A stretch of 64,000 nt of DNA, taken from NCBI GenBank assembly GCA_036924285.1, contig JAYKYS010000023.1, positions 1,364,001 to 1,428,000 of the forward strand, in the 5' to 3' direction. How positions within the stretch are numbered: position 1 is the stretch's first letter; each line of letters starts with the position of its first letter. Of this stretch, positions 27,054 through 58,548 are shown one piece after another. The DNA comes from Asterella californica. Taxonomy: Eukaryota; Streptophyta; Marchantiopsida; Marchantiales; Aytoniaceae. Both the position numbers and the translations under genes were made by a program. Below the pieces are notes generated by a model. That model saw only the letters and a program-made list of their open reading frames with translations. It did not search any database and was not told the DNA's origin.

Positions 27054-29708
27054 TTTTCACCGGAATGCCAATCATTTCCGGAACCGCAATCTATCGCGAG
27101 ACGCAGTCGGAAGGAGAGTATGGGAACCGGAGGGACACCCGGACGTTATACATTGACGTAATGTATCCTCTGAGGTGGAGAAGTTTAATTCGGATGGCGC
27201 AGAATGCCAGTAACGGCACACAGGGTCGCGATACTGTTACATGCTTAAAGAGCGACAGGCGCGAGAATCTCATCTCATCTCACCTCATCATCGAGCCGAG
27301 CTAGAGTCCGGAGGCGCGTCGCAGAGAAGATGATATTTGGATGCTCTCCACCAGGGCAGGCGGCATGTCGACTCTGAGTCTGGAGGTCTTGGAGCAAGTT
27401 AGTACGACGTTACTGGAAGATAGAGGCGGTTTTCTAGGGCTTGGGGTTCTCGTTCCACCCCTCGCGGTCTCCTTTTCCACCACGCTGGCAAGTCTTCCCA
27501 CTTGTCGTCCTTGTGTATATTTGCAGCATACGAGGTACAAACATGACCAGCAGCCGGCACACAAGGTTACCGGTTGACACAATACGACTGCTTCAAGCGA
27601 AGACAACACCTCTCTGACTCGGTCGGCCCAGAAGGTTTACACATCTGATGACTCTGGTCAAGTCCAAGTAGGGGACGGGAGTCACGGGATGAGAGAAAGT
27701 AACCCGAGACACATGCAGTCAAGAAAATGTGCAAGGGACAAAAGGTGACAGGTGGGCTGAGGGCTTGTACAGCTTTACTGACAGGCCTAGCCAGCCCAGC
27801 CAGCCACCGAACTCGGCCTGCCCGAGACCGGCCAAAACCAGCCGAGGGCAGCCCCACCTTGTTGGTCAGGAATTGAGGAAGTTGGCTAAGGGAGACCTTA
27901 TGCGGCTTCTGGCTATGGCGGGCCCCATGAAATTCAGTTCAGAGTCTTCAGACGAGCGGAGAGGAGACGGGAGAAGGGGGATGCATTGCAGATGGACTTT
28001 GTGGGTGGCTGATTGATGGGTTGATCCAAGGTCCAGCGTGGGACGGGAGGCAGGGGAGGAACAAACAAGGAAGAGAATGGCAAAACGGAGGAGGAGGGGG
28101 CGGAAGAAGAAGAAGAAGGAGCAGAAGGAAGCGGGTCGTGGTGGATCCCGCAGCAGGAGGCGAGCAAGAATCGGATTGATTCGCCTCTTCTCCTAGCTTC
28201 GTTTTGACTGGGCAGGAAGATTGTGTTGGGTTGTGGAGTTCAACGCCGCGTGGTGATGGGGAAGGGTGAGTTGGTATTTCTGAGACGATCGCGGTTTTAC
28301 GCACGCCCGCACTGTGAGACCAGGCGAGCCTGGTAAGGACCAGGCGGAGCCACGGCAAAGTCCAGTGTGTTGCGGGGAACTTGCAGCGCCCTCGGCTTCC
28401 CCCTGTTGGACCTCCACGCAAGGGAGTCTTGGCAGCGTGGAAATTATGTTGTTTGTTCCAGAAGGAATTCGGGATTGATTAGGATAGCCTGGGTTGATGT
28501 CATAACTCTTTCACCTTCTCATAGCTGGGGGAGAAGGAAGAGTGAGGTGAGAGACGCCAAGCAGAGAGGGCAGACATACATAGGGAGACACAGTTGCATC
28601 AGTTGACGAATAATTCAGTGTCGACAAGTGATTACTGCTTGGACAGGGTGATCGGGATTTGTTGGCTGGTTTTTATTGTTTGGTTTGTGGTAAGCTAGAT
28701 CCTTTACATTGCTGGTTCCCCTGGGGCCAAGCGAGGAAGGCGGAGAAGAGAACGACATGTTCGAGATTGGGTTCGAGGAGTGACCTCGACTGCGTCTTAC
28801 CCATGTATGGCAATGGAGCGAGGTTCGGAGCGAGGAAGGACGTTCCTTCCACTTTGCGAGCTTGTAGAGTAGCGTTGGCACTAAAGCTAGCAGGCAGGCT
28901 CAGTATATAGACCTTTGTGTTCGGCGAGGAGCTGTTGAGTGTATCTGCTCGTCGGCGACTCCCTTTCGTCTTGCCGTTCCGGCGAAAGGATAGATCCCCC
29001 TACACAGATCACGGGGAACATTGTACTCGGCCGGCGACAGGGCAGTTTTGGATCCAATTCTCGACGGTATCCAATCTGCCTTAGGGAATTTCTGACACAG
29101 GGCACATTGGTGGAGATTAGCTAATTTCGGTTTCCTGTGAGGGTCACGCGCGGATGGACTGGTAGATTTTTCTGTAGCTTGTTGTGGTATAATGGATTGG
29201 AGATTGCGGGGTAGACGGTGAATGATAATGGCTTTTAGCTTCGGCTGTTCTCGAAATCTGTCCAGCTCTTCTGGGTTAGTCAGCTTCCTCCACGTACCAG
29301 GCTGTGAAGCTTGCGCGGATGATTGTGAAGCTGACTCCGACTGCGTCTCTCTGTCGCAGAGATTTATCGTTCGTTCTTGTTCATTGCTTCAGGGCATGCT
29401 GTGGGGAAGCTAGGAACTGATCTAGAAGACTCAATCGGTATCCGTCTATATATCACATCGAGGAGGTGGCTCCTTCTGGGTGCAGATTCGCGCAGTTCCT
29501 CACAGAAAGGGGCTGTACACACACATGGTACTCTACGATATAGATCAGAACTAGTTGTTTCATCGATTCGGACATTTCGGCTGAACGAGTGTAGATTTGT
29601 GATACAAACCTAGGGAAAGAAGGTCCTGCAGCTGTTTCCCGTTGAAAGCGCGGATCGGAGGTCCGCTACATCGTGTTCTTGGGTACTGTAAGAGCTGAAT
29701 CAGGGACC
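27054..29708 (+). other. Upstream region of the P4-ATPase gene, no other gene supported
   Basis: More GC-rich than the DNA before it. Purine-rich and GCC/AGCC-rich pieces (27770-27850, 28040-28140) give long open frames without domains. A 5' UTR with or without an intron is expected here, but I cannot place the transcription start. No TATA box is convincing. Confidence 0.4.
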
Positions 29709-32700
29709 ATGGCCCGGGGTGCACGAACTGGAGGCAAAAACCGCTTGAGGTTCAGTAAGCTGTACACATATGCAGCTTGTGTGAGACCAGGTGCGACCAC
29801 AGACGAGGCTCCTGTTGGAGGGCCAGGATTTTCCCGAGTAGTCTTCTGTAACAATCCGGAGAAACAAATACCGCCACACAAGTACAAGTCCAACTATGTC
29901 TCAACAACGAAGTATAACCTTGCTACATTTTTGCCGAAAGCTCTGTTCGAACAGTTCCGGAGGGTGGCCAATCTCTACTTTCTTCTTACTGCGGCGATCT
30001 CTCTGACTCCTGTTACCCCGTATTCACCTCTAAGTTTGATTGCACCCCTTGCGTTTGTCGTGGGAGTGAGTATGATCAAAGAGGCCATCGAGGACTCTCG
30101 TCGTTTTACTCAGGTTGGTAATATCAGACAAAGTTTTCACGTGGTATTGTTGCTTTGCTTGATATTACCCTTCTACTTCGTGTGGCTATTGACATCTTTG
30201 CCTCCCATGTGGGGGTTTATATACGGAAGTGTAGCTCAAGGAGTTCCTGAGCATCTGGGTTAGTCATCTAGTTCATTAACTGCTGAAAGCTAATTTTCTC
30301 GTGGAACATCACGTGTTTACAGGATCAGGAAATCAACAACCGAAAGGTCAAGGTACACGCAGGGCAGGGGAAATTCGAACCAAGACCATGGAAGAAGCTG
30401 AGAGTGGGGGATGTTGTCAAGGTGGAGAAGGATCAGTTTTTCCCGGCCGATCTACTTATGCTCTCTTCTGCTTATCCGGATGGGATCTGCTATGTCGAGA
30501 CAATGAATCTTGATGGAGAGACTAACCTGAAGTTAAAGAGGTCACTGGAGCGCACCATAGAGTTGGATGAAGACGCCGAATTTGGGCAATTCCATGCCGA
30601 CATGAATTGTGAGGATCCCAATCCCAGTCTTTACACTTTCGTCGGGAACATCACAATCGAGGGTGAGACTTTAGCACTAGGTCCACAGCAGATTCTTCTC
30701 AGGGATTCCAAGCTTCGAAACACTCAGTATGTCTATGGAGTTGTTGTTTTTAGTGGCCACGACACGAAGGTGATGCAGAATTCAACTGACGTACCTTCGA
30801 AGAGGAGTCGTATTGAGAGGAAGATGGATAAGATTATCTACTTCCTCTTTGGCGTCTTGCTTCTGATTTCAATCATCGGAGCTGTTGCTTTTGGAGTGCG
30901 GACCAAGAATGACATGCCGGATTGGTGGTATCTTAAGCCGGATGACACAGATACTTACAACGATCCCGACAATGCTGGTCTATCTGCAATACTGCAGCTC
31001 ATCACGTCGCTCATCCTTTATGGGTATCTCATACCCATATCTTTGTACGTGTCGATTGAGGTCGTGAAGGTCCTTCAAGCTATGTTTATCAATCAGGACA
31101 TCGAAATGTATCATGCAGAAAGTGACACGCCCGCACGAGCCCGTACGTCTAATTTGAATGAAGAGCTTGGACAAGTTGACACCATACTTTCAGATAAGAC
31201 TGGCACGTTGACCTGCAACCAAATGGAGTTTCTTAAGTGCTCAATTGCGGGTGTAACTTTTGGACGGGGAATAACGGAGGTTGAGAAAGCGACGGCGAAA
31301 AGATTAGGAAAGGATATCAAGGACTTAGATGAATATGATGACGATTCTTCACATGATGGGGAAGTGAGGGGTGTGGAGATGACGACCAAGGCTCACATCA
31401 AGGGTTTCAACTTTAAGGATGAACGCTTATTAAATGGGAACTGGGTCAACGAGCCAAATCCTGATGTCATCATGATGTTCTTCAGAATTCTCGCTGTTTG
31501 TCACACGGCAATTCCAGAGGAAGATGAATCCACAGGTTCAGTAACGTATGAAGCTGAGTCGCCAGACGAAGCATCTTTTGTCATAGCGGCTCGGGAATTT
31601 GGATTTGAGTTTTCCAAGCGCACACAGGGCGCCGTTATTGTGCGCGAATATGATCCTTCTTCCAACAAGCAAGTCGAGCGGTAAGCTCTTGTTGCAGTTG
31701 CATTCCACTGCTCTTATTTACACGTTTACGTTACACCTTTTGTTAGACCTGCGCTCATATCCTTGAAATCTCTCAGGAGATTTTTGGATGTGCTATCGTG
31801 AGGTTCCATGAACGTTAACACGTGTGTCTAGAGTCGGCCTAGGTAGTCGTCCGGGATACGTCGAAATTTCTTATCACTCTTGCGAAGTCTGAAGAAGTAA
31901 CTTGGCTCTGTTCAGTGAGTACAAAGTGCTGAATCTCTTGGAGTTCAATAGTACACGCAAGCGAATGTCTGTTGTGGTCAAGGATGAAAACGACCAAATT
32001 TTGGTAATGTGCAAGGGCGCTGACAGGTGTGAAATTTTTCCTTTCTTCTACTACTCTCTTTTGCTTTGTTTGATTCCGGGAAGTGGCTAGCCCAGTGTAT
32101 ATAAGCAGCGGAAAGATGGACCATGTCTGATGATGCGGTGGTCTCTTTGGATCAATGGACCCTAAAAGTTCGTGGTTGTGGCACAGTGTTATTTACGAGA
32201 GGCTCGGTAAGACCGGCAGGGCCTTCGCTGAGGAGACTAAAGCCCATCTAGCAAAATATGGAGAGGCTGGGTTGCGTACTCTGGCCCTTTCTTATCGCAA
32301 GCTAGAGGAGGCCGAGTACACCGAATGGAATGCAATTTTCATGAAGGCCAAAACGACGGTTGGTGCAGATCGCGATTCTCTGCTAGATGCTGCATCAGAA
32401 CTGATCGAGAAGGACCTCATTCTTGTTGGGGCAACCGCCGTGGAGGACAAGCTCCAGGCGGGGGTGAGTCTGACTGCTCTTCATATTCGCGGATGGTCGT
32501 AGTAATTTGTCCTTTCCCTTACGAAAATTTTGGGACCTTCTAAAAGTACTAATCATTTCTCTCATTTCTTTCCCATTTGAACAGGTCCCAGAGTGTATCG
32601 ATCGGCTTGCTCTGGCCGGGCTGAAAATTTGGGTCCTCACTGGCGATAAGCAAGAAACTGCCATCAATATTGGGTGGGTTTCTGGGGTGTTTTTGGGGAC

Positions 32701-34917
32701 CTTTTGAATTCAGACGGGGCACAGTATCGGGCAAGAAAATATCTCGGATGCTCGTTCTTCTCAGATTGTCTGTCCTCACGTCTTGTTTACTTTCAAACAG
32801 GTTTGCCTGCAGTCTACTCCGAGAAGGAATGAAGCAGATAATTGTCAGTTTAGAAAATGCTGAAGTCAGAGCTGCGGAGGAGTTTGGAGATAAAGACAGC
32901 ATAGCTAAGGTAAATCAGTTAGTTGGTTTTCCTAGTTTCCTCCCGTGTTTTCTCTTCTCTAGGAGTCTTCTTTTGTTTTGTTCTTGGCTCATGCGTGTGC
33001 TGATTTGCAGGTGTCCAAGGAAAGTATCACGCAACAGCTCATGATTGGACAACAGCAGGTCGACTTGGAAAGGAATAATCCCGATGTAGTGTTTGCTTTG
33101 ATAATCGACGGAAAATCTCTAATACATGCGTTGGACGATGGTTTGAAAGAGAAACTGCTTCATCTTGCCACCAACTGTGCATCGGTCATATGCTGTCGTG
33201 TTTCACCTAAACAGAAAGCTATGGTAAGCTGACATCATGAGGTGCATAATGTGCTTGTTGCCTTTATTTAGAATTCAACGCGCGGTTTGCAAACGGTTGC
33301 ATAGACAGAGCAAGGAGTTTAAAGTAGTAAGAACTACGGTCTGTTTTACTTACCAGTAACATATGTTGCGAATGAAGTTGCTGACATCCGTTTATGCAGA
33401 TAACGAGACTGGTGAAAGAAGGCACCGGTAAGACGTGTCTCGGAATCGGTGATGGTGCAAACGATGTCGGCATGATACAGGAAGCAGATATTGGGATTGG
33501 TATCAGTGGAGTTGAAGGCATGCAGGTAAGATGTCGTGCACGTTTTCAAGGGGGTTTTGCGTTTGTTCTAGCGGTTAATGACACTCTCTTAAGGCTTGTT
33601 TCGTTGAACAACTCTTTCACTTGCGTTATTTCGCAGCATGGTTGCCCTTCACTGCCTGTATGGACAAGAAGTGATTTTGTTCTGTCTCCTCGCAGGCTGT
33701 CATGGCCAGTGATTTTGCGATCGCCCAATTCCGCTTCTTGGAAAGGCTGTTGATCGTGCACGGCCATTGGTGTTACAAACGTATTGCTCTTATGGTGAGT
33801 TTCTCGTGTGGTTTGGTTGAGATTTCTTTCATGCGCTGAATACTTGACAAACTCCGTAGCCTCACATCTAAGTTGTTGAGTCTGACATGATGGTGGGTGG
33901 TATGCAGATTTGCTACTTCTTTTACAAAAACATAACTTTCGGCCTCACGCTCTTCTACTATCAAGCGTATTCGGTGTTTTCCGGCCAGACAGTGTACAAC
34001 GATTGGTACATGTCATTGTTCAACGTATTTTTTACTTCATTGCCTGTTATCGCTCTGGGAGTATTCGAACAAGACGTCTCTCCTCGTATTTTGATGCAGG
34101 TAAGAATTCTCAGTCCTTATAGCCCATCGTTTTCCCGTTTATGGTAGAGCTGATCTTGAGGAGTCTTCGTGATTATTTTGCTTAATCCTAAAGGTGGAGA
34201 AAAAAGTTAAGCTTGGAATCTGAATTGTGGATGTGGATTTTGCAGTTTCCTGCCCTTTATCAGCAAGGGCAACAAAATCTTATGTTTGGCTGGTCGCGCA
34301 TCTTCGGATGGATGATCAATGGGTTGTATAGCTCTGTAATTGCTTTCGTGTTCAACATGTTGGCGATCGCACACTCAGCGTTTCGCAGCGATGGTAAAGT
34401 GCCAGGTCTTGAAGCTATGGGAGCAATTATGTACACAGGTATCGTTTGGGTAGTGAACGTGCAGCTCGTGCTCGCACTTAGCTATTTTACGTGGATGCAG
34501 CATGTAGCCATATGGGGCAGTATCGCACTGTGGTACATCTTTTTGGCTGTCTACGGGAGTATCACTCCGTTACAATCCACAACCGCGTACAAGGTTCTAA
34601 CTGAAGTCATCGCCCCTGCACCGATGTTCTGGTTGATTACGCTACTCACAACCCTTGGATGTATCCTGCCGTACTTTGCTTTCTCCTCATACCGACGAAC
34701 ATTTTATCCTCAAGACCACCATATAATTCAAGAGATCCGACATCTACAGAAGCACCTGACAGATCCTGAAATGTGGAGACGGGAGCGGAAGAAGGGAGTG
34801 CTGAAAACGTCAGTGGGAATGACAGCACACGTTGAGCACAGAGTGAGCAGCATGCGAACAGACGTCCGCTTTGGGCAACAACCAGTTGGTTATGATAATA
34901 ATAATAGCATGTTATAG
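29709..34917 (+). CDS. ALA: P4-type ATPase, phospholipid flippase (plant ALA family)
   Basis: Moves aminophospholipids or related lipids from the outer to the inner leaflet at the cost of ATP; family members usually work with a CDC50/ALIS beta-subunit. The gene resolves into 11 exons with GT-AG introns and consistent phases: 29709-30113, 30323-31680, 31916-32026, 32187-32463, 32585-32673, 32801-32909, 33011-33223, 33400-33525, 33696-33794, 33908-34099, 34246-34917. The product is 1,216 residues, normal for the family. The start is the ATG in GACCATGGCC; the frame extends 12 codons further upstream without an ATG. Visible signatures: FPADL, DGET (D199) of the actuator domain, the phosphorylation site DKTGTLT (D426), [29 protein letters not shown] (near residue 871) and a C-terminal block of membrane segments. 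All catalytic signatures are intact and there are no stops, so this looks like a working host gene. Which ALA subfamily it belongs to is not settled, though the N-terminal [20 protein letters not shown] is typical of the ALA4-12 group. Confidence 0.95.
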
Positions 34918-38929: not shown

Positions 38930-40696
38930 CTAAAAGACCTTCCTGGGGACGAACGGCACAGGCGGCTGGAGTTTATTACCGCGCAAGTCCAAGAATCTTA
39001 TGTCGTCGATCAAGTTAGAGATCGAAGCTGGAACTTTGCCACTGAGCTGGTTGTCGGAGAGATCGAGCTCCCAGATTCCTTGGAGCGATGCACCGATGTC
39101 TGCAGGTAGAGGCCCAGTTAACGAGTTGCCCTTCAACCAGAGAAGAAGAGGAGCGTTCAGACTCCGGAGGAAGGTGGAAGTTATGGGGCCCGAGAGGTTA
39201 CAGAAGCTGAAATCGATGAATGAAGGACCGACTGTGAAATCAGGGTCCGGCAGGACTCCTCCCAGAGGGTTCCTCGACAGGTTCAGGTTCTGGATGTTTT
39301 TCTTGAGAAATGGAACTGGAGAGCCTGTGAATCCGTTGCCGGAGAGGTCGAGTTCGATGTAGAACGGCTCGAACATCCACGAGGGAAATGGACCTGAGAA
39401 TCGGTTGTGCGACATGTAAAGCCATCTGAGAAAATTCTCGAGCTCGGCTGGAGGATTGCCGATCCTTCTCTTGTCACTGAGCCTGTTGTAAGAAACATCG
39501 ATCGAGCTGAGCCGCAAGAGTTCCAGCGGAAATCCGCCTGAGATCATGTTGTGGTGTGCTATGATCGTACCCCCGAGGATTCCTCCCAACTCTGCAGGCA
39601 GGCTACCGGAGATTCTGTTGTAAGATACGTCGATCTTTACGTCTCCCGGGAGCTTGCCGAATCCTGGTGGGATTCTTCCATTAATCGCGTTCCTGCTCAG
39701 ATTCATGCTGACCAAGCCCTGCAAGTTACCCCAGTTCAATGACGGAGGGAGACTCCCTGAAAGCTGATTCTCTTGCAGGTTCAAATCCCGAAGCTTTCGG
39801 CACTTGCCCAGCTGTGTGGGGATTCCTCCACTCAATCTATTCCTCAGCAGAAGTAGCTCCTGAAGTGAGGTCATATCTCCAAACTCATTTGGAATTCGCC
39901 CCGAGAGTTCGTTATCGCTGATATCGAGGAGTCTTAAGCTCTTGAGCTTTCCAAAGCTTGGAGGAATTTGACCTGTGAATTTGTTCTGCTTCAGCAACAG
40001 AAGCTGCAGCTTCGACAGATCACCGATCCATGCAGGGACTGGCCCACTCAGAGAATTGTTGCTGAGATCCATCTCTTCGATATGTGTCCATGAAGAGCCG
40101 AGGCAGGAGGGTAAGGAACCAGTGAGTCGATTGCTTGCTAAGTTTACCACCTTGACTTTAACGAGCTTGCAAATCTCCGAAGGGAGTGGACCCACGATGG
40201 CATTAGTAACCAAACTGAAAGTCTCCAGCTCCACGAGATTGCCGATGGAGGCAGGAATCTTGCCAACTAAACCAACGTTGTCTAGCACCAGTTTGTTCAG
40301 ATGCTTGAGCTGTCCCCAGTTCTCAGGTATCGAGCTCCGGAAATCGAAGTTCTGCAGCAGAAGAGACTCAAGCGCAGTAAGACGTCCGAGCTGCTCGCCC
40401 ACAACGCCCTTGTAGTTGGGATTTGGATATGGTAGACTCAAGATGGATGCTCTAATATCCAGCACCAAAACTCGGCCGGTGACAGGATCGCATTCCCACA
40501 CTTCCGCCCATTCACAGCAATTTGATCCAGGCACCCACTGGAAGAAAACGTCCTCCTGGTGTACGAAAGAGTCCTTGAACGCGAGCAAACTCTGACTATC
40601 TTGCGCGTTGCATTGAGGTTTTGGAACAGCCTGCCCGACCACCCCGCTCACGGCTACGAGCAAGAGAAACAATTTGAAAGCAGCTGCGATTGTCAT
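38930..40696 (-). CDS. Secreted leucine-rich-repeat protein (receptor-like, no kinase)
   Basis: Intronless, 588 residues, ATG at 40694-40696. Residues 1-21 form a signal peptide (hydrophobic LFLLLVAVSGVVG). A plant LRR N-terminal cap follows, with QDSQSLLAFKDSF and the paired cysteines of GSNCCEWAEVWECD. About 18-20 repeats of the extracellular plant type follow, seen as LxxLxxLxLxxNxLxGxIPxxxG variants, for example LRLLDISDNELSGRIP. The protein ends in PPVPFVPRKVF without a transmembrane segment or kinase, so it should be apoplastic, in the style of PGIP or DRT100-like proteins. It could bind a cell-wall component, a peptide or a partner receptor; the ligand is unknown. A full-length LRR receptor kinase is excluded by the stop, and no kinase domain lies downstream. 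Confidence 0.9.
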   Translation of the reverse strand: MTIAAAFKLFLLLVAVSGVVGQAVPKPQCNAQDSQSLLAFKDSFVHQEDVFFQWVPGSNCCEWAEVWECDPVTGRVLVLDIRASILSLPYPNPNYKGVVGEQLGRLTALESLLLQNFDFRSSIPENWGQLKHLNKLVLDNVGLVGKIPASIGNLVELETFSLVTNAIVGPLPSEICKLVKVKVVNLASNRLTGSLPSCLGSSWTHIEEMDLSNNSLSGPVPAWIGDLSKLQLLLLKQNKFTGQIPPSFGKLKSLRLLDISDNELSGRIPNEFGDMTSLQELLLLRNRLSGGIPTQLGKCRKLRDLNLQENQLSGSLPPSLNWGNLQGLVSMNLSRNAINGRIPPGFGKLPGDVKIDVSYNRISGSLPAELGGILGGTIIAHHNMISGGFPLELLRLSSIDVSYNRLSDKRRIGNPPAELENFLRWLYMSHNRFSGPFPSWMFEPFYIELDLSGNGFTGSPVPFLKKNIQNLNLSRNPLGGVLPDPDFTVGPSFIDFSFCNLSGPITSTFLRSLNAPLLLWLKGNSLTGPLPADIGASLQGIWELDLSDNQLSGKVPASISNLIDDIRFLDLRGNKLQPPVPFVPRKVF

Positions 40697-45134: not shown

Positions 45135-45262
45135 CTCGATCGAGTATAGGGCGTGGGAGATTTCTCTCCTTTACAAAGTTGCGCCACTTGTGGGTTAGTT
45201 TCTGTGTTCATACATATGGGTCCCTGGAAAATGCTTGATAGTGTCCAAAATTTCAAACAGGG

Positions 45263-45543
45263 TGTACGTCAGTTTGGTAACTCGGCTAGGTTGACCGAGT
45301 GCGAAGTGACGGACCCCGTTAAGGCCGTTAGGGCAAGTTGGTGAGAGTGCCCACAAGGGATATACTTCACAGGTAGGGGCTTGGAGACCTCAGTTCTTCA
45401 AGTTGAGCCTTCAAGCTCCTGGGTATGGTGAGTAGTCTTGAGAGTGAGATCTGGATTCTCTGCGAGCACAGAGGGATTTGGCTCGACTGTAGTGATTGTC
45501 TAGTGTCTGTTGGCAGGTGGAGTGAGTACATACCTTGTTATCA
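45263..45543 (+). repeat. 5' LTR, missing its first ~110 bp
   Basis: From ACGTCAGTTTGGTAACTCGG at 45266 to TTATCA at 45543 it aligns with 54771-55048 over 278 bp each, with about 95% identity by eye. The first ~110 bp of the LTR (TGTAGTACTC to GACA) are absent here. Confidence 0.9.
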
Positions 45544-47270: not shown

Positions 47271-48909
47271 ATGTGTTCGCGAGATTCTATCACCACGGAG
47301 TTCTCGGGAGGTTCTGGTGGAGACTTCTCAGATAGTGGGTATACACGGAGTGGGATGAGATACCGACTACCTACACCATTGCCGTTGGTTGTTCTAGAGG
47401 ACGAGTCAGACGCAAATAGTCATTTTTTGATGGTGAGTCTAGTGTCACCACATCGTTGTTGTGGGACATGGACGAGATCTATGGAGCCACGAAGGGGCCT
47501 CGACGTTACTCGGGTACGGTGGGTACCATTGAGCTGGATGACTTTATCCAGGAGTTCGACAGTTGGTGCGATCTGTAGCAGATGTGGAACCCACAGTTGT
47601 TCACACTTTTCACGACGTGGAAGGGTTTGTTTCAGCACTTGGAGGGATCGTCGATGGACGATTACCCGAATTCAGACGAGACTATGGTATTGAGATTGAG
47701 TTGTGGAGACAACATTAGTCTCCCAACTACGTTTCTATCACTACTGGTGCAGTTTCGGGAGGCGTAGCACCTTCGAGGTCAGGTGCCAGTAGTAGTGGTA
47801 CATCCACGAGTGGCGGAGTCCCTACTACCAGCGGTGTGTCCACTACTAGTGGAGCAGGTGGTAGTGCGAGCGGGATACCACCAGAGTTTAACCCTGTGGT
47901 TCAGTTCTTCCACTGTTTGAGGAAGAATTATCAGGGTGTGCGGATCGACAAGTTGAAGAGTTTGCAGGAGTTCCAGCGGAAGACTGGAGAGAGCCTACGT
48001 GAGGCTTTTACTCGCATGAGGCGGTTGATCAGCGTTACTCAAGGAGTGACGGAAGCACAAGCGGTGCAGTTTTGGTATGAGATACTAGACCGGGAGCTGC
48101 GTAGGAGAGTCAGAGATGTCACTCTCCTTAGAGACACCGCTCCGACATTGGCGGTTGTCTTTGGTTTGGCTGAGCGGATTGAGCTCAACATGATAGAGGA
48201 GAGGGTGGTGACTGCTGGGTTCAACAGAGACGTATCACATGGAGCGACCTCCTTTTCTCGAGGATCACAGGCTACGCAACAGCGTGGTGGTGGTGGTGGT
48301 AAGGATCGTGTTGAGCACTCACGATCCCATGGAGGTGCTGGAGGATCTAGTGGGCAGAAGTCCATGCCGTCCTTCTCTAGTCAGCAACAAGCAGATCCTT
48401 GCTGGACTTGTGATGATCCTCATCAACAGAAGGACTGTCCACAAAGGAGAGGTGGTTAAGGGACATCTGGGACGTCTCAAGCAGTGCCTAGGCAGTGTGA
48501 GCATTGCGGGCGATCAGGTCACAGTAATGACCGTTGTTTTGATCTCCACCCCGAGCTACGGCAAGAGAAGGCTGATCGTGGACGAGGCGGAGGAGCTCAG
48601 GGAAGCCGTGGTGGTCGAGCTGGAGGTAGAGGTCCAGCACCTGAGAGAGGACCAGTTGGTCCATCGTTTGCTACGACGTCAGAAGTAGGTATGGCTGCTC
48701 GGATTGAGCAATTGAAGCAGAGGATAGCTAGTATGGCTATGGCTCAACGGAGATCTGGTGGAACAGAAGCTTCCACGTCTTATGGAGGAGAAGGAGGTGA
48801 CTTCGACTTCATGGCTGGTGTGGCGCAGATTGAGACATCTGCGGCAGTGACTCGGAGTGCAGTACGTATCTCTGAGCCACGAGGAGCGTTAGTGGAGTTG
48901 GATCCATAA
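47271..48909 (+). pseudogene. gag region with two CCHC zinc knuckles (broken)
   Basis: Structural protein of the retrotransposon particle. The N-terminal part (about 47530-47700) reads FDSWCD, then MWNPQLFTLFTTWKGLFQHL, interrupted by a TAG and frame changes. From 47836 the frame is steady: a Ser/Thr/Gly linker, then a capsid-like segment (LQEFQRKTGESLREAFTRMR and AVQFWYEILDRELRRR). A first knuckle has spacing CX2CX3HX4C (CWTCDDPHQQKDC, 48400-48438), and a canonical CX2CX4HX4C follows (CEHCGRSGHSNDRC, about 48496-48538). An in-frame TAA at 48457-48459 separates the two knuckles, and another at 48907-48909 separates gag from the protease region in the same frame. Both stops could arise from CAA by one transition. 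Confidence 0.8.
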
Positions 48910-51367
48910 CGCGGGGAGGCAGGCAGACAAGCCAGACTTCCTCTATCATTCACGCTATCAGAGGCATTGAGGATCACTTCTATGGTTCCTAAATGGTCTA
49001 CCGATGGTGCAGTGGAGTTGGAGACATCGACATCCAAGAGTGGGGATAATGCGAGTCAACCTTCGACGTCGAACTCGATGTTGGGGACGACTACAGTAGT
49101 TTTGCGAGCTCCACTATTTTTAGCCACGGATATGAGGGCATTGGGAGTCAGCTTGGCTCCAGTGTTCCAGTTGGCAGCCACGCTTAGTGAGAGCGAGGAT
49201 GTGATTATCTCTAGTGCTGAAGTGGTTCAGCAAGAGGCGGTAGATGTGTCCATGGAGTCGAAGATCAGGACAGCTACTAGTGGTACTTGGCAAGCAGCGA
49301 CTGCCAGACTAGATGAGTTACCAGCTAGGCCAACAATTGACCGTGCTGGATTGGCACCAGGTGTGGTGTTGTTGGACAACAGAAGTGGTATCTTCTGTTT
49401 GGTGGCACCTTCAGGGAAGGTGTATCGACCACAGAAAGTGTTGTTAGACTCTGGAGCCCAACCGTTGATGTTGGGAAAGACGGCGTGTATCGGTTTGGGA
49501 CTGAGGAAGTCCGAAGTGGAAAGATGTCCGTTCCAGCTACAGACATCTCTAGGGGGATCAGGAGGTACAACTCTACACATGACACACGAGTTGCTGACGG
49601 TGAGAGTTCGACCAGATCATCCCACGGATGGCTCCATGGTGAGGGCCAATGCTATCGTTACGGCCGCAGAGTCTTATGATGTATTGGTTGGAGGTGCTGT
49701 ATTATACCCTATGAGGTTCGTGATCGACTATTGGGCGGAGACAGCATCTTACAGACCGGGTTGGCAGTCCGGTGAGGGACGAGTGAGCCGTTTACCAGTG
49801 CGGTTCAGTGCTAGAGTTGGGACAACGGAGCCTACATCAGAGACGATGACATCTGTTGTTGGGTTTAGTTCGGTCATCACTTGGCCGGACGAGTTGTTAG
49901 AGGGTAATGTCCATGCGGAGGATACTCCTGTTTTTGAGGAGGTGGAGGACATGTCTATCATGTCTACATTAGTACCATCTGCTTTAGATTTTCCACTTTG
50001 GAGTTCGAGTGGAGAGTTGCAGCAGTATGCTGATCGGTTGGTGCAGCAGGCTTGGAGTGAAGCCTTTGTACCGCCAGTAGAGGAACATCAGGGTGTTCCT
50101 GTTACTGGTCCTGTGACCTTAACACCGTTGGATACGACTCTCATTGCATGGCAGTATCCAAAGGAGGGTGTGTGTGTGTTGGAGCTGTTTGGATGGATCA
50201 GCATAGGTTTGGCTGCGGTATTGCAGGCAAGCATACAAGTACAACGATACTTGTATGTGGAGAGAGATGAGGTCGCAAGACGCGTCTCATTGCGTCACGT
50301 GGCACGTTTGGTGCAGAGATATCCTGAATTGTTGTCTATATCAGCCGTTAGAGGATACCAGCAAGCATTACCGTCAGATATTTCACTGCTGGAGACGCAT
50401 GATCTCACGTTTGTTGGCACCATTCACTTGGTGATAGCCGAATGGCCATGTCAAGGTCACACGCGTGCTGGGAGAGGTCAGGGTTTGCATGATCCACGAT
50501 CTAGGATGTTTTGGGAGATGTTACGGATCTTACGACATCTCCAGATGCATCAGGTGGATTCTCCAACGTACATCTTGGAGAACGTTCCTTTGTTGGGCGA
50601 TGCTCGTGCACATATGATGACGAGTGTGCACCAGGTGCGGTCCTGGGTTGGACCGGCAGTCTTGTTAGATGCAGCGAGAGTGGGATCTCTTGCACATCGT
50701 CCACGGTTGTGGTGGACGAACTTGTTACCGAGGGAGGTGCTCAAGCGCGCACACGATGCAGTGAGACGACCAGCGCACCTCACAATTGATGGCATCTTGG
50801 ATGCAGGACGACGATCTCAAGTAGTGAGAGTCGTTGACAAGTCATCCATGACAGTGATGAACCTAGTGGGACGATCCATGACAACGTTACCCACTTTGGT
50901 GAGCTTTTTAATGTCACATGCTTACAGAGATGGAGGACTTGGGCTTGTGTGGGATGCTCGGTTACAACAGTTGGTGGAGTCCAATGCCGACGAGAGAGAG
51001 AGCGATGGATTTTCCTACGGGTACGACGGCAGTAGCTTCGGTGTCGGAGGCTTCACGTCATCAAGTGTTGGGTCAAGCAATGGACTTGAACTGCTTGACA
51101 TGGATTGTTAGCCTTGGACTGGCTGAGCAGCGTTGGATGCGATCGACGGGTGTTACTACTCGTACACTCTTGAGCTCTTTACCTACCAGGTCGATGGAGG
51201 CAAAAGCTGAGGGCGAGGCAAGTGGAGTTCGTCATCCTTGGACATCATGGGATGTCGTAGGAGAGAGTGTGGAGCTTGCAGCTAAAACTGCAGAAGTTTT
51301 TCGCACAGTAGCGGTGGGAGTTGTTGGTGGTGAGCAGAAAGAAACTGCTCCAGAGGCTGCAAGATAG
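48910..51367 (+). pseudogene. Aspartic protease plus C5-cytosine DNA methyltransferase domain of the retrotransposon polyprotein
   Basis: Numbering starts at the ATG at 48967. The retropepsin site is LLDSGA with D161. A methyltransferase domain starts near residue 402. Motif I is VLELFGWISIG (405-414), where the usual FGGIGTG has lost two glycines. Motif IV is WPCQGHTRAGRGQG, with catalytic cysteine C495. Motif VI is YILENVP (E538). Motif VIII is HRPRLWWTN (R578, R580). The reading then slips in a GAGAGAGAG run near 50990-51000. In the +1 frame the sequence continues into RAMDFPTGTTA and RHQVLGQAMDLNCL, which fits motifs IX-X. Thus the catalytic core is complete in outline between protease and RT. 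A stop at 51365-51367 (TAG) precedes the RT in that same frame. The likely ancestral activity is cytosine-5 methylation of DNA, perhaps the element's own cDNA. The broken frame and altered motif I make this copy inactive. Confidence 0.88.
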
Positions 51368-52916
51368 CAGTCAACGACTTCGTCTTCTACCTCTAGCATG
51401 GTGACAGAGGATACTTGGGAGACGGAGATTGGACCCAAGCTTATAGAAGAGGAGAGACGAAGAGTGCAGAGATTCCTGAAGAGCTACAGGAATTGTTTTG
51501 CCTTTAGTATGAAGGATTTGGGTACCTTGAAGGGACCGGATATACGGATCGACTTGGCTAATGACACGTCAATCTTTCGACGTCCTTACATGTACAGTGA
51601 CATGGAGAGAACCTTGATCCAGAGTAGGACTAAAGACTTGGTGGAAGCTGGGTTGGTGGAGATGTCGCATGGAGAGTATGCATCTGCCACAGTTATACCA
51701 GCAAAAAGGGATATGTATGGCAACTACACGGATAGGCGTATGTGTGGAGACTACCGTCTTATCAATCGGCAGACAAAGTTCGATAAGTATGCCATGCCGA
51801 CACCTGAGGAGATCTTTGATGCAGTGGGGCATGTGAAAGTCTTCAGTACTTTGGATCTTCGAGCAGGGTATCATCAGTTGTCGGTGAGAGAGGAAGATAA
51901 ACCCAAGACAGCATTCTGGGGGATTGACTCTCACGGCAAAGATTGTTTGTATCAGTGGCGGTTCTTACCATTTGGGTTGAAGAACGCCCCTGCTGAATTC
52001 CGAAGAGTGATGGATAGGATCCTAGCAAGATTGGATTTTGTCAGATGCTATATTGACGACATCTTAGTCTATAGTGCTACAGTGGAGGAGCACGAGAGAC
52101 ACTTACGGGATGTGTTCAAGCGGTTGAGAGCTCATGGGTTGAAGTTACACCCTGGGAAGTGCAAGTTCTTCCAGGAGTTGGTAGAGTATCTGGGTCACAC
52201 CATCTACCCATGTGGGTTGGGTGTTCAACAGACGAAGATCGAGGCCATTGCACGTATTCCACGCCCCACAGATGTGAGTCGAGTTCGAGCATTTGTTGGT
52301 TTGGTGAACTTTTATCGTCGATACGTGAAAGGATTTAGTGCAATTACGAAGCCATTGACCAAGCTGATGAAGGTGGACCAGGAGAGGCAGTGGGGAGATG
52401 AGCAAGAGCGAGCTTTCGTGGAGCTCAAGGATAGGTTGACATCTGCTCCCATCTTGAGGAGACCCGTTAGGGGACGTCCTTTCCAACTGCACACTGATTG
52501 GAGTATGTTGGGACTTGGAGCAGTGCTGACTCAGCATGATGATGAGAAAAATGAGTTTGTGGTGACGTATGCCAGTCGCTCCAACAATTCGGCGGAGGCG
52601 AGGTACAGTTTGTACGAGGGGGAGTGTTTAGCTGCAGTGTGGGCTATTACACACTTTCGATGTTATCTGTTTGGACCCCTTTACTCTCATCACTGATCAT
52701 CAGCCGCTCAAGTGGTTGATGGAGTCCGACAAGCTGACAGGGAAGCTTGCACGATGGGCTCTGATCTTACAAGAGTATGATTTTCAGGTAGTGCATAGAC
52801 TTGGAGTTGCAAACCTAGATGCCGATGAGTTGAGTCGCAACTCGTGCACGAGTCAGCAGGATCAGATTGGGGCTCGATGGCATGATGAGGTTGATGAGGA
52901 GATAGTGCCAGGGTGA
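51368..52916 (+). pseudogene. Reverse transcriptase and RNase H (frameshifted)
   Basis: The main open part is 51398-52696. RT landmarks: RRPYMYSDME, CGDYRLINRQT, FSTLDLRAGYHQL, LPFGLKNAPAEF and the catalytic CYIDDILVYS (YIDD at residues 218-221), then GHTIYPCGLGV and FVGLVNFYRRYVKGFS. RNase H follows with FQLHTDWSMLGLGAVLT and YSLYEGECLA. One base is lost near 52670, after FRCYLFG, and the frame resumes as FTLITDHQPLKWL and NLDADELSR, ending at a TGA (52914-52916) before the integrase. The active-site residues of RT and RNase H are present. Confidence 0.93.
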
Positions 52917-54485
52917 CATGCATCTGTCTTTCTTTGTGTGTTGGCCATGAACTCTAGGATGGAGGACCAAGTCGTATCTTTCTCAAGTGAGAGAGTAGAT
53001 GACGAGTCTCCAGATCTTGAGGGTGGAGATAGTGTTCCCGACCAGCGAGATATCCATGATGATGTGATCGTGATGGAATATCTACATACTGGCGTGGTGG
53101 TAGGCACAGTAAGTGCCAAGGAGCAGGATCGTGTCCTTCAACGAGCAAAGAGATTTCGACGAGAAGGACGACATGTACTTCGAGTGTGGAATGACGGGAG
53201 AGTACGGATAGTGTCACATCCATCCCAGAGGACACAGTTAGTACGACATGCTCATGAGGAGTTGGGACATTTTGGAGTGAAGCGCACGCATAGCTTACTC
53301 CAAGGACAGTATTGGTGGCGTGGTATCCACGTCGATGTGCAAAAGTTTGTTGCAGGATGTGTGGTTTGTGATCGAGTACGAGCATCGTTTAATGCTCCTA
53401 CTCCACAACTACACCCCTTACCGATTATGGGGTTGGGTTACCGTTGGAGTTTGAATTTTACGGGACCCTTACCGTTGACTGTACGTCTTCATCGATATGT
53501 GTTGGTGATGGTGGAGCACTTTTCCAAGTGGATTGAGTTGGTGACACTACCAGACAAGACGAGTGAAGAGACGGCGTATGCGTTCTTAGATCGAGTGCTG
53601 AGTCATTTTGGAGCACCAGCTGAAGTGCTGACAGACCAAGGTACAGAGTTCCTTGGTGAGTTTCAGGCCTTGTGTGATCAGGCGTTGATTGATCATCGAA
53701 CTACGTCTCGAGATCATCCTGAGGCGGATGGTTTGGCGGTAGTTCAGATGGTGAAGAGAGGATTGCGTAAGTATGGCTTGCAGAAGGGCCACTTGAGAGA
53801 CTGGGATGTGCAGTTACCATGGTTGGCTACGGGCTACCGTTTTAGCCGACAAGAGTCTTTGGCTTCCTTCTCATCATATTTTCTATTATACGGTCGAGAT
53901 CCAGATCTACCTCCGACCATTCGTCGTGATTCTGCTGAGGTGCTGAACCTTGATGACCCGGATATATGGGTGAGAGCATGTTCTCAACGAGCAGAGACAT
54001 TTCGGAGAGTTATGCCCATGGCTTTTGAGAATCTAGCGATTGCTCAGCATAGAGACACGTTGCGATATGCAACTATCCGAGGAGGAGGTTATCGATCATC
54101 GATTCGCAGGTTTCATCCTGGCGATTATATCTATCTGCAGCAGACTGCATCGACGACGTTGGATGTGACCGCATGACGCACTATTTTACGAGTGCATGAG
54201 GTGTTACCTTCTGGAGTATTCATGTTAGAGGGCCTTGATGGTGTTGTTTGGAAGGACCATGTGCGTAATTGCGCGTCATGTCATCTTCCCAACATCGATG
54301 GTACCGTTGACTCAAGCTTGGCAGTTGTACGAGCAGGCTTGAGGTGTATGTTGTGTGGGTCTGCTGGTGGAGCAGCCTGTATGTTGGTGTGTGATGGTTG
54401 TTCGAGAGGTTGGCACATGTCATGTTTGACTCCACCTCTCACTGTCATTCCTATTGGACGGTGGGTTTGTTCTCGATGTATATAG
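52917..54485 (+). pseudogene. Integrase with C-terminal PHD finger (broken)
   Basis: One frame from 52917 to TAG 54485, with an in-frame TGA at 54174-54176 (CGA to TGA would explain it). The HHCC zinc region is visible as HEELGHFG to FVAGCVVCDRV. In the core, the first catalytic Asp is replaced by Asn (RWSLNFTGPL). The second is present (TDQGTEF). The third, Glu, is missing because two residues are absent in HPEADGLAVVQMVKRG, so this integrase cannot work. After a basic linker (FHPGDYIYLQQ; VHEVLPSGVFMLEGLDG) comes a PHD finger at 54342-54482: CMLCG, LVCDGCSRGWHMSCL, then PPLTVIPIGRWVCSRC, the Cys4-His-Cys3 pattern. PHD fingers typically read histone H3 tails. Here it occupies the place where chromoviruses carry a chromodomain, which suggests a targeting role. 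Confidence 0.9.
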
Positions 54486-54644
54486 CAAGGATAGCCGATT
54501 AGATCTTTGCGTGGTATGGATTGCAGACAAGCGACTAACGATGAGGTAATGTAGCACCCGGCCTCTTGATCCTTGCACCCATGAAGGTGTATATCACGTA
54601 GTTGAGATATGGAGCTATCTGGAGTTAGAGGGACCTAACCGTCA

Positions 54645-54658
54645 GTTAGGGGGGCGAT
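54645..54658 (+). other. Polypurine tract of the retrotransposon
   Basis: GTTAGGGGGGCGAT directly precedes TGTAGTAC, the start of the 3' LTR. This fixes the LTR boundary used for reverse transcription. Confidence 0.7.
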
Positions 54659-55048
54659 TGTAGTACTCTTGTGTATGTGTATGACATAGTCCATGTGTTA
54701 TGTGTATGTGCGGTGTTCTTTTGACAGCGATGTATGTTGTGTAGCGATGTGTATGCGCACGACAGCTGTCACGTCAGTTTGGTAACTCGGCTAGGTTGAC
54801 CGAGTGCGGAGTGGCGGACCCGTTAAGGCCGTTAGGGCAAGTTGGTGAGAATGCTCACAAGGGGTATACTTCGCAGATAGGGGCTTGGAGACCTCAGTTC
54901 TTCAAGTTGAACCTTCAAGCTCCTGGCTATGGTGAGTAGTCTTGAGAATGAGATCTGGATTCTCTGCGAGTACAGAGTGGATTTGGCTCGACTGTAGTGA
55001 TTATCTAGTGCCTGTTGGCAGGTGGAGTGAGTACATACCTTGTTATCA
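54659..55048 (+). repeat. 3' LTR, complete (390 bp)
   Basis: Runs from TGTAGTACTC to CTTGTTATCA (TG...CA). At positions 103-112 it contains the palindrome GACAGCTGTC. Confidence 0.85.
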
Positions 55049-55049
55049 T

Positions 55050-55155
55050 TGTGGTACACTTGTGTATGTGTATGACATCGTCCATGTGTAATGTGTATGT
55101 GTGGTGTTCCTTTGACAACGATGTATGTTATGTAGCGATGTGTATGCGCACGACA
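55050..55155 (+). repeat. Second LTR start, positions 1-106 only
   Basis: TGTGGTACACTTGTG to GCGCACGACA repeats the first 106 bp of the 3' LTR, one base after that LTR ends. It stops exactly where the truncated 5' LTR would resume after two or so missing bases. Confidence 0.88.
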
Positions 55156-55936
55156 AGGGCTACATTCTGCTGGAGAGTTGAGAAATACACTCGAACAGGG
55201 CCACGATTTGTTGGAGAAGTGAGAAATATACTTGATCTAGTGGCAGTGCTCATGCAAGCCATGGGGTGGTGTGAAACAGAAGAACCATACAGTGTAGATT
55301 TCAAAGAACGAATTCTTATCGATCAGTTCAAGTGTAAAGTTTACTAAACTAGGGTTAAAAAGCTTCTGGTTTATACAGTCGTTGTGGAATGTAAATCACA
55401 TTGAGGTCCAACAAATCAGAAACTTACAGAAGAAAGTGCACTTCGACATATTGAACCGACAGTACAACATGAGGAATTCAGACAAATTTGTTAAATCATA
55501 CTGGAACAGGAGGACCGAACACCTAAAATGAACGAGGAATGTTGACATCGATCCAAGAAGCTCTCTCTCTCTCTCTCACTCTCTCTCGTATCCTCTGAAG
55601 TTGAAACTTTCCACTTACCTATCACGCAGCACCGACCGCGCATGCATACCAAATCGCTTGATTGATTGCCTCGACTTGCTCGACTGCTTCCGCATCGCCT
55701 GACCACCGAATCGTGAAGACATAAACTATAAAAGAAACAAGAACCGTGCTCCAGAACTCAACAGGAATACGCTTCAGAATAAAACTTGCTAAACTGTTGT
55801 TGCATTTTTGCAACTTGGTGGTGGTCGAGCGGGAAATCCAGTCACCATCTAAGTCCGCTCTCTGTGCAGGAGGCTTGCGGAGCTAAAAAGCTTTACAGAG
55901 GGTATCCTAGAGGATATCCTAACATATCCTCTACGA
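55156..55936. other. Intergenic region upstream of PIG-H
   Basis: No gene supported. A small ~40-bp direct repeat lies at 55168-55240 (TGYTGGAGA-GTGAGAAATA). A CT-rich microsatellite lies at 55561-55588. Confidence 0.4.
55561..55588. repeat. (CT)n microsatellite
   Basis: A CT run of about 28 bp with one CACT interruption. Confidence 0.8.
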
Positions 55937-56573: not shown

Positions 56574-57135
56574 AGAGCTAATGAGATCGGTGAGTGGGAG
56601 CATCTGTAGTTGTCGTCCTCTATGGTGCTTTAATGGTTGAAGTACTCTTGTAGGACCTTTGCCGGCACTTGTCCCTTACAATCAGACCAGGTTTGATCGT
56701 GCAAAATTTATCAAGTTGAGGGACCCAAAGATTTGGTTCAGTCCAGCTCACTTCACATCAGTTCACCTCATGTCGTAAGGTCGGGTATATAAGACGAGGT
56801 CTTTATACTGGTGTTACAGTCCAAGTCAAGAAACAAATTTCCTCATGGAAAGGATGAATTAAACACTTGTTTTGGTTAACGTAGTGCAGGAGATCAAGCT
56901 TATGAGGTGTATCGGTTAGTACTGCCCCAGTCCCGCGGGACAGAGTATTAGTGTGGTGCTCTCGTCAGCTTATTGCAGTTGCTGGATCTTAGGGTACACA
57001 GTTTTTCAGTGCCCAAGAGTTCAGGAATTTACTAGACAGAATAGCTACTTTGTCCGATCGTCTGAAGTGATTCATAGTATTCTGGTTGGGGGATTCTCAC
57101 TGCAGAGCGGTAAGACTGTGGCCCGAGAAGCCAGA
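56574..57135 (+). other. Intergenic: PIG-H 3' end and UGT promoter / 5' UTR
   Basis: Contains the TATA-like box at 56786. No other gene. The UGT reading frame is open upstream of its first ATG for about 60 codons but has no ATG there. Confidence 0.45.
56786..56793 (+). promoter_or_regulatory. Probable TATA box of the UGT gene
   Basis: TATATAAG, 343 bp before the UGT ATG. A start site near 56820 would give a 5' UTR of about 320 bp. Confidence 0.45.
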
Positions 57136-58548
57136 ATGAAACCTCATGCACTACTGGTACCTCTTCCTGCCCAGGGTCACATTGCCCCTATGGTCAATGT
57201 AGGCTTTAGGCTAGCCAACAACGGTATCACCATCACTTTGGCTAGTTTCAGGAAAGATATCTTGAGCATCAAAGCGAAGTACGCCGAGGAATTGCGGAGT
57301 CTCGATTTCCATCTAGTGGAGCTCGATCATGACCCGGGGCACATTGACAACGTCAAGATAACGACGCCTTATGTCATGGGAGCTTTGAGTCGCGGAATAC
57401 AGCCCTTAGTGGAGAAGCTGGAAGTTGATCGGCTGGCAGGGAATGCCATTCCCACCTGCATCATTGGGGATTATCTCCTATCTTGGTCAGATGATGTAGC
57501 AGTCCGGTTGGGTGTGAAGCATTACGTTCTTTTTAGTTGCGGCGTTGTCTTTGCTAAGCTGTTCCAAGAACTGCCTGTCCTGTTAGACACAGGTAAACTT
57601 CAGCTAGGAGAGGGTAACTGTGTCATCCCATTTGATGGACTTGTAGAAATCGCTGGTGTTGCATCTGTGAAATATTCGGAACTTCCTTTACGTATCACAA
57701 AAATACCCCTTCGGGTTAAACATACCAGTCAGGCTCACGCAAGGGCACATAGCATTGTGGTTAATACATTCTTTGACCTAGAACCCAAAGCGATCAGCTC
57801 CTATCAGACCTTCTCTTTCTCTTCCTCTGAGCAGACCCAAGGGAGGGTTGCCCAACTGTACGCTATTGGACCCATCGTAACTGCGGCCACTTTCATAGAT
57901 CACTCATATATTAGCCTCATTGCAACTACAGGCACAGACTGCTTAAAGTGGCTGGATACTCAGCCTGCATCATCTGTTCTGTACATATGCCTTGGGAGTA
58001 TGGTTCGTCTCTCTGCCCCAGAGATTAAACAGCTAGCTCTTGCTCTTGAATCAAGCGAGAACTACAATTTCTTGTGGGTTCTTCATCGAGGGAATGGGAA
58101 TTTTGAACTATTGGAGGATGTGCTCCCTGCTGACTTCGTTACGAAAGTGAATGGGCGTGGTCTTGTTACAACAGCTTGGGTACCCCAGTTCCAAGTTCTC
58201 TCACACCCAGCCATCGTGGGCTTCCTTTCACACTGCGGTTGGAGTTCTATAATGGAGAGCCTGACTTCAGGTGTACCCATGATTGGTTGGCCTCACAGAG
58301 CTGAGCAGTTTCTGAACTGCAGATATATGGTGGATGAACTGAATGTAGCTACTGAAGTCCTTAGGGGGTCCGATGGTGTTGTCGAGCAAAAAGAATTCGA
58401 AAAAGCTTTCACGGTTCTGTTTGGAGATGAAGGGAAGGCAATGAAGGAAAGGTGTCAAGAGCTGAAGGTGAAAGGGGCAGCTGCCGTAGCTCCAGGAGGT
58501 TCCTCTGAGAATGCCTTTCTCCAGCTGGTGGAGGACATCAAATCCTGA
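57136..58548 (+). CDS. UDP-glycosyltransferase (plant family 1, UGT)
   Basis: Transfers a sugar from a UDP-sugar to a small-molecule acceptor in the cytosol. 470 residues, single exon. The start is the ATG in CCAGAATGAAA, which gives the usual N-terminus MKPHALLVPLPAQGHIAPM with the catalytic-base His in PAQGH. The C-terminal PSPG box runs from W348 to Q391: WVPQFQVLSHPAIVGFLSHC, then GWSSIMESLTSGVPMIGWP and HRAEQ. The usual HCGWNS is HCGWSS here, and the terminal D/EQ is EQ with an unusual HR before it; both positions contact the UDP-sugar. The acceptor cannot be predicted from sequence. The frame is intact. Subgroup placement among bryophyte UGTs is open. Confidence 0.93.
   Translation: MKPHALLVPLPAQGHIAPMVNVGFRLANNGITITLASFRKDILSIKAKYAEELRSLDFHLVELDHDPGHIDNVKITTPYVMGALSRGIQPLVEKLEVDRLAGNAIPTCIIGDYLLSWSDDVAVRLGVKHYVLFSCGVVFAKLFQELPVLLDTGKLQLGEGNCVIPFDGLVEIAGVASVKYSELPLRITKIPLRVKHTSQAHARAHSIVVNTFFDLEPKAISSYQTFSFSSSEQTQGRVAQLYAIGPIVTAATFIDHSYISLIATTGTDCLKWLDTQPASSVLYICLGSMVRLSAPEIKQLALALESSENYNFLWVLHRGNGNFELLEDVLPADFVTKVNGRGLVTTAWVPQFQVLSHPAIVGFLSHCGWSSIMESLTSGVPMIGWPHRAEQFLNCRYMVDELNVATEVLRGSDGVVEQKEFEKAFTVLFGDEGKAMKERCQELKVKGAAAVAPGGSSENAFLQLVEDIKS

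What the first reader, a model, noticed from the sequence alone, without database searches (positions are those of the whole stretch)
50155..51105. C5-cytosine DNA methyltransferase domain inside a Ty3/gypsy polyprotein, between protease and RT
Seen: motif I (VLELFG), PCQ with C495 in motif IV, ENV in motif VI, RPR in motif VIII, and after a slip in a GA run, the IX-X-like FPTG and LGQAMDLNCL, all in the expected order and spacing. They sit downstream of DSGA (protease) and upstream of the RT, in what was one frame. Known: capture of cytosine methyltransferases by retrotransposons has been reported in charophyte algae and dinoflagellates (de Mendoza and colleagues, 2018). Inference: a related lineage exists, or was retained, in this plant and could methylate its own cDNA or new insertions.
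Basis: partly seen in the sequence, partly recalled or inferred. Interest (0 to 1): 0.95.

Follow-up and report, generated by a model that had tools for sequence, protein, structure and literature searches.

The report
DNA-methylating jumping gene in a liverwort
A very common liverwort jumping gene carries its own DNA-methylating enzyme of the DNMT3 type, a kind of passenger reported before in algae, so a land plant's genomic parasite may mark its own DNA.

The parts
45258..45261 (+). left target-site duplication AGGG
   Evidence: matches 55156-55159; exact 4-bp duplications in 10 of 13 sequences with both ends by script, an 11th by eye
45262..45543 (+). A1, left terminal part-repeat, begins TGT(C)ACGTCAG
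   Evidence: repeat search and alignment with A2
47271..48909 (+). gag region in broken frames, with CCHC-type knuckles
   Evidence: PF03732 only at E 0.014, below cut-off
49408..49755 (+). aspartic protease with DSGA
   Evidence: sequence motif; same order in 20 of 20 copies; no Pfam match of its own
50128..50995 (+). DNMT3-like C5 methyltransferase, motifs I to VIII and following (first frame)
   Evidence: PF00145 E 1.1e-7; fold of an open copy's domain matches DNMT3A
50993..51112 (+). methyltransferase motifs IX-X in the second frame after the GA-run slip
   Evidence: continuous with the first part in open copies
51365..51373 (+). stop TAG followed by CAGTCA (fits the CARYYA readthrough hexamer) between ORF1 and ORF2
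   Evidence: 19 of 19 copies that hold the site, and the window; ORFs in the same frame in open copies
51398..52860 (+). reverse transcriptase and RNase H (frame-broken near 52690; right end approximate)
   Evidence: PF00078 4.1e-32, PF17919 1.6e-30
53121..54155 (+). integrase: H2C2 zinc finger and rve core
   Evidence: PF17921 8.7e-17, PF00665 1.4e-14
54345..54485 (+). C-terminal PHD finger and stop
   Evidence: read from the sequence; PF00628 6.8e-11 in copy L022; PDB matches to PHD fingers
54644..54654 (+). polypurine tract-like AGTTAGGGGGG before B1
   Evidence: sequence; a G-rich tract at this place in 16 of 16 printed sequences, window included
54657..54764 (+). B1 part-repeat, ends ACGACA
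54765..55048 (+). GC joint plus A2 part-repeat, begins TGTCACG
55049..55155 (+). B2, right terminal part-repeat, ends ACGACA
55156..55159 (+). right target-site duplication AGGG

Best explanation
The feature is the methyltransferase domain of a Ty3/Gypsy element family that carries, and keeps under selection, a DNMT3-type cytosine methyltransferase. Shown: the domain is part of ORF1 (gag-protease-methyltransferase), followed after one in-frame UAG by ORF2 (RT-RNase H-integrase-PHD). Inferred: because it lies on the Gag side of the stop, it is made in Gag amounts and packed in every particle, while RT and integrase come only from readthrough (UAG CAGUCA). Inferred: in the particle or pre-integration complex it methylates CG sites of the new cDNA before the integrase, aided by its PHD finger, inserts it with a 4-bp duplication, so that the copy arrives already marked as host-like or silent DNA. 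The identity of the element is near certain; the confidence given is for the whole statement, self-methylation included.
Against: No activity was measured. The closest published analogue, KnitGypsy-Dnmt3, showed no methylation in yeast, judged inconclusive by its authors. CpG observed/expected is 0.74-0.76 in five copies and 0.78 in the window element against 0.80 for the rest of the window, 0.84 and 0.65 in the two flanks, so there is no clear mark of self-methylation. The stop and hexamer are invariant, but so are 43 of 133 nine-base windows around, so conservation alone does not prove readthrough. The 20 copies were chosen for rank and long open frames.
Confidence: 0.55

Rival explanations
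1. The domain is kept but works on RNA, or as a nucleic-acid-binding part of the particle, not as a DNA methylase; its place next to protease and Gag would suit that.
For: Gag-side position; de Mendoza and colleagues raise RNA methylation for the LINE-type elements; KnitGypsy-Dnmt3 showed no activity on DNA in yeast.
Against: Catalytic motifs and the DNMT3A-like fold are conserved; DNMT3-type domains of DIRS elements methylate DNA.
Confidence: 0.2
2. A recent, independent capture of the liverwort host's own DNMT3 by a Gypsy element, unrelated to the algal elements.
For: The host has a DNMT3 gene (L001), and capture has been described as recurrent.
Against: The 32 retroelement domains of the tree fall on one side of a 100/100 branch from 12 plant host DNMT3s and 12 other methyltransferases; median identity of the L022 domain is 39.0% to green-algal-type element domains, 30.2% to the 12 other methyltransferases and 27.3% to plant host DNMT3s.
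Confidence: 0.05
3. Two or more captures from a shared source, for example an algal or viral DNMT3, into different Gypsy lineages, explaining the two positions of the domain (PR-MT-RT versus RNase H-MT-IN).
For: The position differs between the groups; the two SymbioDIRS-Dnmt3 orders were read as independent captures; MTase-free relatives were not sampled.
Against: RT and MTase trees agree on the RNase H-MT-IN group (99/98 and 95/99), and a PHD finger after the integrase is found in both groups (this genome's copies, P0025 and P0049 on one side; 59 of 68 integrase-bearing proteins over all).
Confidence: 0.25
4. A non-functional passenger, fixed in one master element and carried along.
For: The window copy is dead; many copies are broken.
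Against: dN/dS 0.17-0.18; the domain is retained in liverworts, moss, Closterium and chlorophytes.
Confidence: 0.03

Closest known systems
KnitGypsy-Dnmt3 of Klebsormidium nitens (de Mendoza et al. 2018, PMC5890265)
   Same: Gypsy domains, a Dnmt3-type domain in the polyprotein, repeats arranged as in DIRS elements, Ka/Ks below 0.2
   Different: Host is an alga, with fewer copies than Symbiodinium; the sections I read mention no PHD finger, no stop between MTase and RT, no Gag-side position and no target-site duplication for it. Its sequence was not at hand, so common descent is likely but untested
SymbioDIRS-Dnmt3 of dinoflagellates (same paper)
   Same: DNMT3 domain in Pol, A...B-A-B repeats
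   Different: Tyrosine recombinase instead of a retroviral-type integrase; another retrotransposon class
Chlorophyte and environmental RT-RH-MT-IN-PHD polyproteins (e.g. P0053, P0103, P0108, P0112, P0114)
   Same: Same methyltransferase group, PHD finger, Gypsy-type RT
   Different: Methyltransferase between RNase H and integrase
Ty3 and chromoviruses (Ty3/Gypsy)
   Same: RT-RNase H-integrase order; Ty3 is the best solved RT match, 4.3e-76
   Different: No methyltransferase; ordinary LTRs; in chromoviruses a chromodomain instead of a PHD finger (recalled)
Plant host DNMT3 (MpDNMT3a, MpDNMT3b)
   Same: DNMT3 catalytic motifs in the same order
   Different: 25.2-30.0% identity to the L022 domain (12 proteins); separate branch, 100/99

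Membership tests
C5-cytosine methyltransferase, DNMT3 type | PF00145 over the curated cut-off | tested here: met
   32 bits against 22 in the window, 36.3 in L022
C5-cytosine methyltransferase, DNMT3 type | motifs I, IV (PCQ), VI (ENV), VIII, IX-X in the usual, not rearranged, order | tested here: met
C5-cytosine methyltransferase, DNMT3 type | fold closest to DNMT3 | tested here: met
C5-cytosine methyltransferase, DNMT3 type | falls inside the clade of eukaryotic host DNMT3s | tested here: inconclusive
   separate from the 12 plant DNMT3s, but the root was set on the non-element rows and algal host DNMT3s were not in the set
C5-cytosine methyltransferase, DNMT3 type | methylates CG de novo | not testable with these tools
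   needs an assay
Ty3/Gypsy LTR retrotransposon | RT-RNase H-integrase order and Gypsy-type RT | tested here: met
Ty3/Gypsy LTR retrotransposon | whole LTR at each end | tested here: not met
   A at the left, B-A-B at the right
Ty3/Gypsy LTR retrotransposon | TG...CA ends and short target-site duplication | tested here: met
   TGTC...GACA; 4 bp exact in 10 of 13 by script, 11 with one by eye, one mismatch in 2
DIRS order | tyrosine recombinase | tested here: not met
   rve and H2C2 integrase instead
DIRS order | split direct repeats A...B-A-B | tested here: met
   both ends seen in 12 of 20 copies plus the window; all 13 have this order
KnitGypsy-Dnmt3 lineage | sequence kinship with the K. 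nitens element | not testable with these tools
   no protein named as K. nitens was listed or 50
KnitGypsy-Dnmt3 lineage | Gypsy plus Dnmt3 plus DIRS-like repeats plus purifying selection | tested here: met

The most novel reading that the evidence does not exclude
One Gypsy lineage acquired a DNMT3-type methyltransferase and a PHD finger near the base of green plants and has carried both, as a writer and a reader of chromatin marks, through chlorophytes, charophytes and bryophytes up to today, with the methyltransferase moved once between the Pol side and the Gag side. It packages the enzyme in each particle and pre-methylates its cDNA, and it replicates through split repeats with a retroviral-type integrase, a route not understood for any LTR element I know of.
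Probability: 0.3. Interest if true: 0.88.

Novelty: new variant of a known kind. Interest (0 to 1): 0.7.

Why it matters
Cytosine methylation is normally what plants use against retrotransposons. A very abundant, recently active land-plant element that carries the enzyme itself inverts that, and brings the question from Klebsormidium and dinoflagellates to liverworts, Marchantia polymorpha included, a model plant with genetics. A 2019 opinion paper states that methylase-encoding transposons are not present in land plants such as tracheophytes and builds an argument on their loss (PMC6338049, passages read); bryophytes now need to be counted separately. The split-repeat plus retroviral-integrase layout is a second open problem in its own right.

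Tried and rejected
Separate nested insertion of an MTase gene: rejected; the domain is in frame between protease and the ORF1 stop in open copies and in the same order in 20 of 20 copies. These copies were 20 of the 123 places, chosen for rank and long open frames, all by their methyltransferase hit.

Copies without the domain (less biased check): a 20-mer in RT has 1063 exact matches, one in the methyltransferase 657, although in my 21 sequences they occur in 20 and 17, so part of the RT copies lack a good methyltransferase. I looked at the first six RT places on contig C1 without a known MT partner: 4 of 6 still hold methyltransferase sequence, 1 (L140) keeps only 75 bases of the element in the kilobase fetched, 1 (L144) has gag and protease sequence where the domain should be, a deletion. 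An MTase-free sister family is not excluded.

Rearranged plant DRM: rejected, the motif order is not rearranged; a host DRM-like gene is another locus, L002. Independent liverwort capture: see rivals.

Stop-codon conservation as proof of readthrough: not discriminating. CpG depletion as a mark of self-methylation: not clear. A viral-contig scan kept 80 loci of 24-34% identity, not used further. ARAGORN found no tRNA in the window, and I identified no tRNA primer site after A1. Genome-wide counts of the repeat joints were asked for but did not complete. My PHD probe was read in a wrong frame; the PHD assignment rests. The gag profile drifted and rings inside the MTase; those hits are ignored. 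In one search the L010 row held only 64 residues and P0050 was 46% filled.

Full report
Observation. HMMER finds PF00145 in the window translation 50155-51111 at E 1.1e-7. RT, RNase H, integrase H2C2 and rve follow. Before the 3' repeats a PHD finger can be read at 54345-54485; in a copy with open frames it scores 6.8e-11 for PF00628 and matches solved PHD fingers of CHD4, KMT2C, KDM5B and others.

The element. The window lies in a 516.7-Mb genome of 773 contigs. The best-scoring named relatives of the element's domain are Calypogeia, Marchantia and Sphagnum proteins, and the host DNMT3 gene in L001 is nearest to Marchantia paleacea and M. polymorpha (70 and 66%), so the host is inferred to be a liverwort near Marchantia. 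Of the 123 places listed, 20 were fetched, chosen for rank and long open frames. In 20 of 20 protease and methyltransferase come in the same order (in L016 with an insertion between them); 19 of 20 go on into RT, the exception being L016. Open copies have ORF1 of about 1370 codons (gag with CCHC knuckles, protease DSGA, methyltransferase), one TAG, then ORF2 of 1041 codons (RT, RNase H, integrase, PHD) in the same frame. The stop and the next six bases read TAG CAGTCA in 19 of 19 copies with the site and in the window. CARYYA after a stop is a described readthrough signal (PMC3441728, passages read); the hexamer fits, but 43 of 133 nine-base windows around it are just as invariant.

Ends. Direct repeats show a left part-repeat A and a right block B-A-B. 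A1 was found in 15 of 20 copies, B-A-B in 15 of 20, both in 12 of 20, and both in the window; in the others one end is truncated, nested or outside the fetched stretch. The termini are TGTCACGTCAG...CGCACGACA with 4-bp target duplications: of 13 sequences with both ends, exact in 10 by script, in an 11th (L025) by eye where the B2 end is altered, and with one mismatch in L015 and L021. The window has AGGG on both sides. The internal B|A joint is ACGACA-GC-TGTCACG in 14 of 16 sequences, that is, the two element ends joined through two bases, whereas at the A|B joint 6 of 16 depart from the common form of their subfamily, by one to about ten bases. A G-rich tract precedes B1. If RNA ran from A1 to A2, ordinary replication would give BA-interior-BA; the integrated form A-interior-BA-B equals that molecule closed to a circle and opened at a B|A joint, but always at the same one of the two (13 of 13), which an even choice would not give. 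How the ends are made is therefore unexplained. The arrangement itself matches what de Mendoza and colleagues report for the K. nitens element.

Numbers and age. 140 of 140 scored places (from 3851 first-look candidates, so a lower bound) match the whole 276-residue probe; by my count of the printed rows 39 of 140 lie in an open frame of 1363 codons or more without a stop, which says nothing of ORF2. A 20-mer at motif IV has 657 exact matches, control 0; one in RT has 1063, control 0. A1 and A2 are identical over 289 bases in two copies; the window copy differs at 13 of 277 plus 8 of 108 positions (5.5%), so it is an older insertion. Against the nearest of the 20 copies, 335 of 392 differences are transitions, as expected of methylated, decaying DNA.

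Relatives. Three protein searches gave 29, 112 and 297 hits (120 of the last listed). Of the 127 proteins of the first two, 45 show protease-methyltransferase order, 8 of them with RT after it; 60 have RNase H before the methyltransferase. Of 68 proteins with integrase, 59 have the PHD finger after it. In a tree of 56 chosen rows the 32 element domains lie together, 100/100, against 12 plant host DNMT3s and 12 other methyltransferases; the RNase H-MT-IN group is 95/99 (with P0028); the protease-MT-RT group is unresolved there, but its liverwort members follow the order Calypogeia, then Marchantia with this genome. In a tree of 27 RT-RNase H rows each group is on one side of a branch, 99/98 and 94/88. 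The host rows were those that resembled the liverwort DNMT3; algal host DNMT3s and the K. nitens element are missing, so one capture is favoured, not shown.

Literature. I read of PMC5890265 the abstract, introduction, first two results sections, the charophyte and yeast sections and the discussion. It reports DNMT3 in a Gypsy element of K. nitens with DIRS-like repeats, and DNMTs in LINE and DIRS elements of Symbiodinium. PMC12344493 (passages) speaks of DNMT3 in Copia and DIRS elements as reported in streptophytes and dinoflagellates, and the word liverwort does not occur in its text. PMC6338049 (passages) states absence from land plants such as tracheophytes. The listings of ten paper searches and the passages of further papers showed no report of such an element in a liverwort or moss; subscription papers and supplements were not searched, so an earlier report, for example in supplementary trees, remains possible. 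Automatic annotation already names some Marchantia copies as cytosine methyltransferases.

Verdict. The kind is known from algae; its presence as an abundant, recently active family in a liverwort, its Gag-side place before a readthrough-like stop, its PHD finger, and the shared methyltransferase across green algae and bryophytes are additions. Self-methylation of cDNA is the leading mechanism and is untested.

Noticed in passing
L009-L028 and flanks, repeat joints: The A2|B2 joint departs from the common form in 6 of 16 sequences, while the B1|A2 joint (the two element ends joined through GC) is the same in 14 of 16, and only one of two possible circle openings is seen (13 of 13). No replication scheme I know explains this.
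   Followed up: partly
P0053, P0058, P0103, P0108, P0112, P0114 and others: Dozens of green-algal and unnamed Gypsy polyproteins carry the same methyltransferase between RNase H and integrase, most with a PHD finger after the integrase.
   Followed up: partly
P0026, P0029: More divergent methyltransferase polyproteins (34 and 30% identity to the window), P0026 with a protease before the domain, host unknown; possibly a third lineage.
   Followed up: no
L001, L002: Host methyltransferase genes of the same genome: a DNMT3b-like gene and a DRM-like gene with rearranged motif order.
   Followed up: partly
window 56953-58548: UDP-glycosyltransferase gene (PF00201, 1.3e-17) just downstream of the element.
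   Followed up: no
window 38930-40696 minus: Leucine-rich-repeat protein, 588 codons, single open frame.
   Followed up: no
window 29673-34917: An ORF at 29673-30263 matches the N-terminus of phospholipid-translocating ATPases (PF16209); later ORFs up to 34917 look like the rest of such a gene, though the one tested (30404-31684) had no Pfam match.
   Followed up: no
window 24667-25314: Fragment of another reverse transcriptase (PF00078 6.7e-6, below cut-off), outside the Gypsy element.
   Followed up: no
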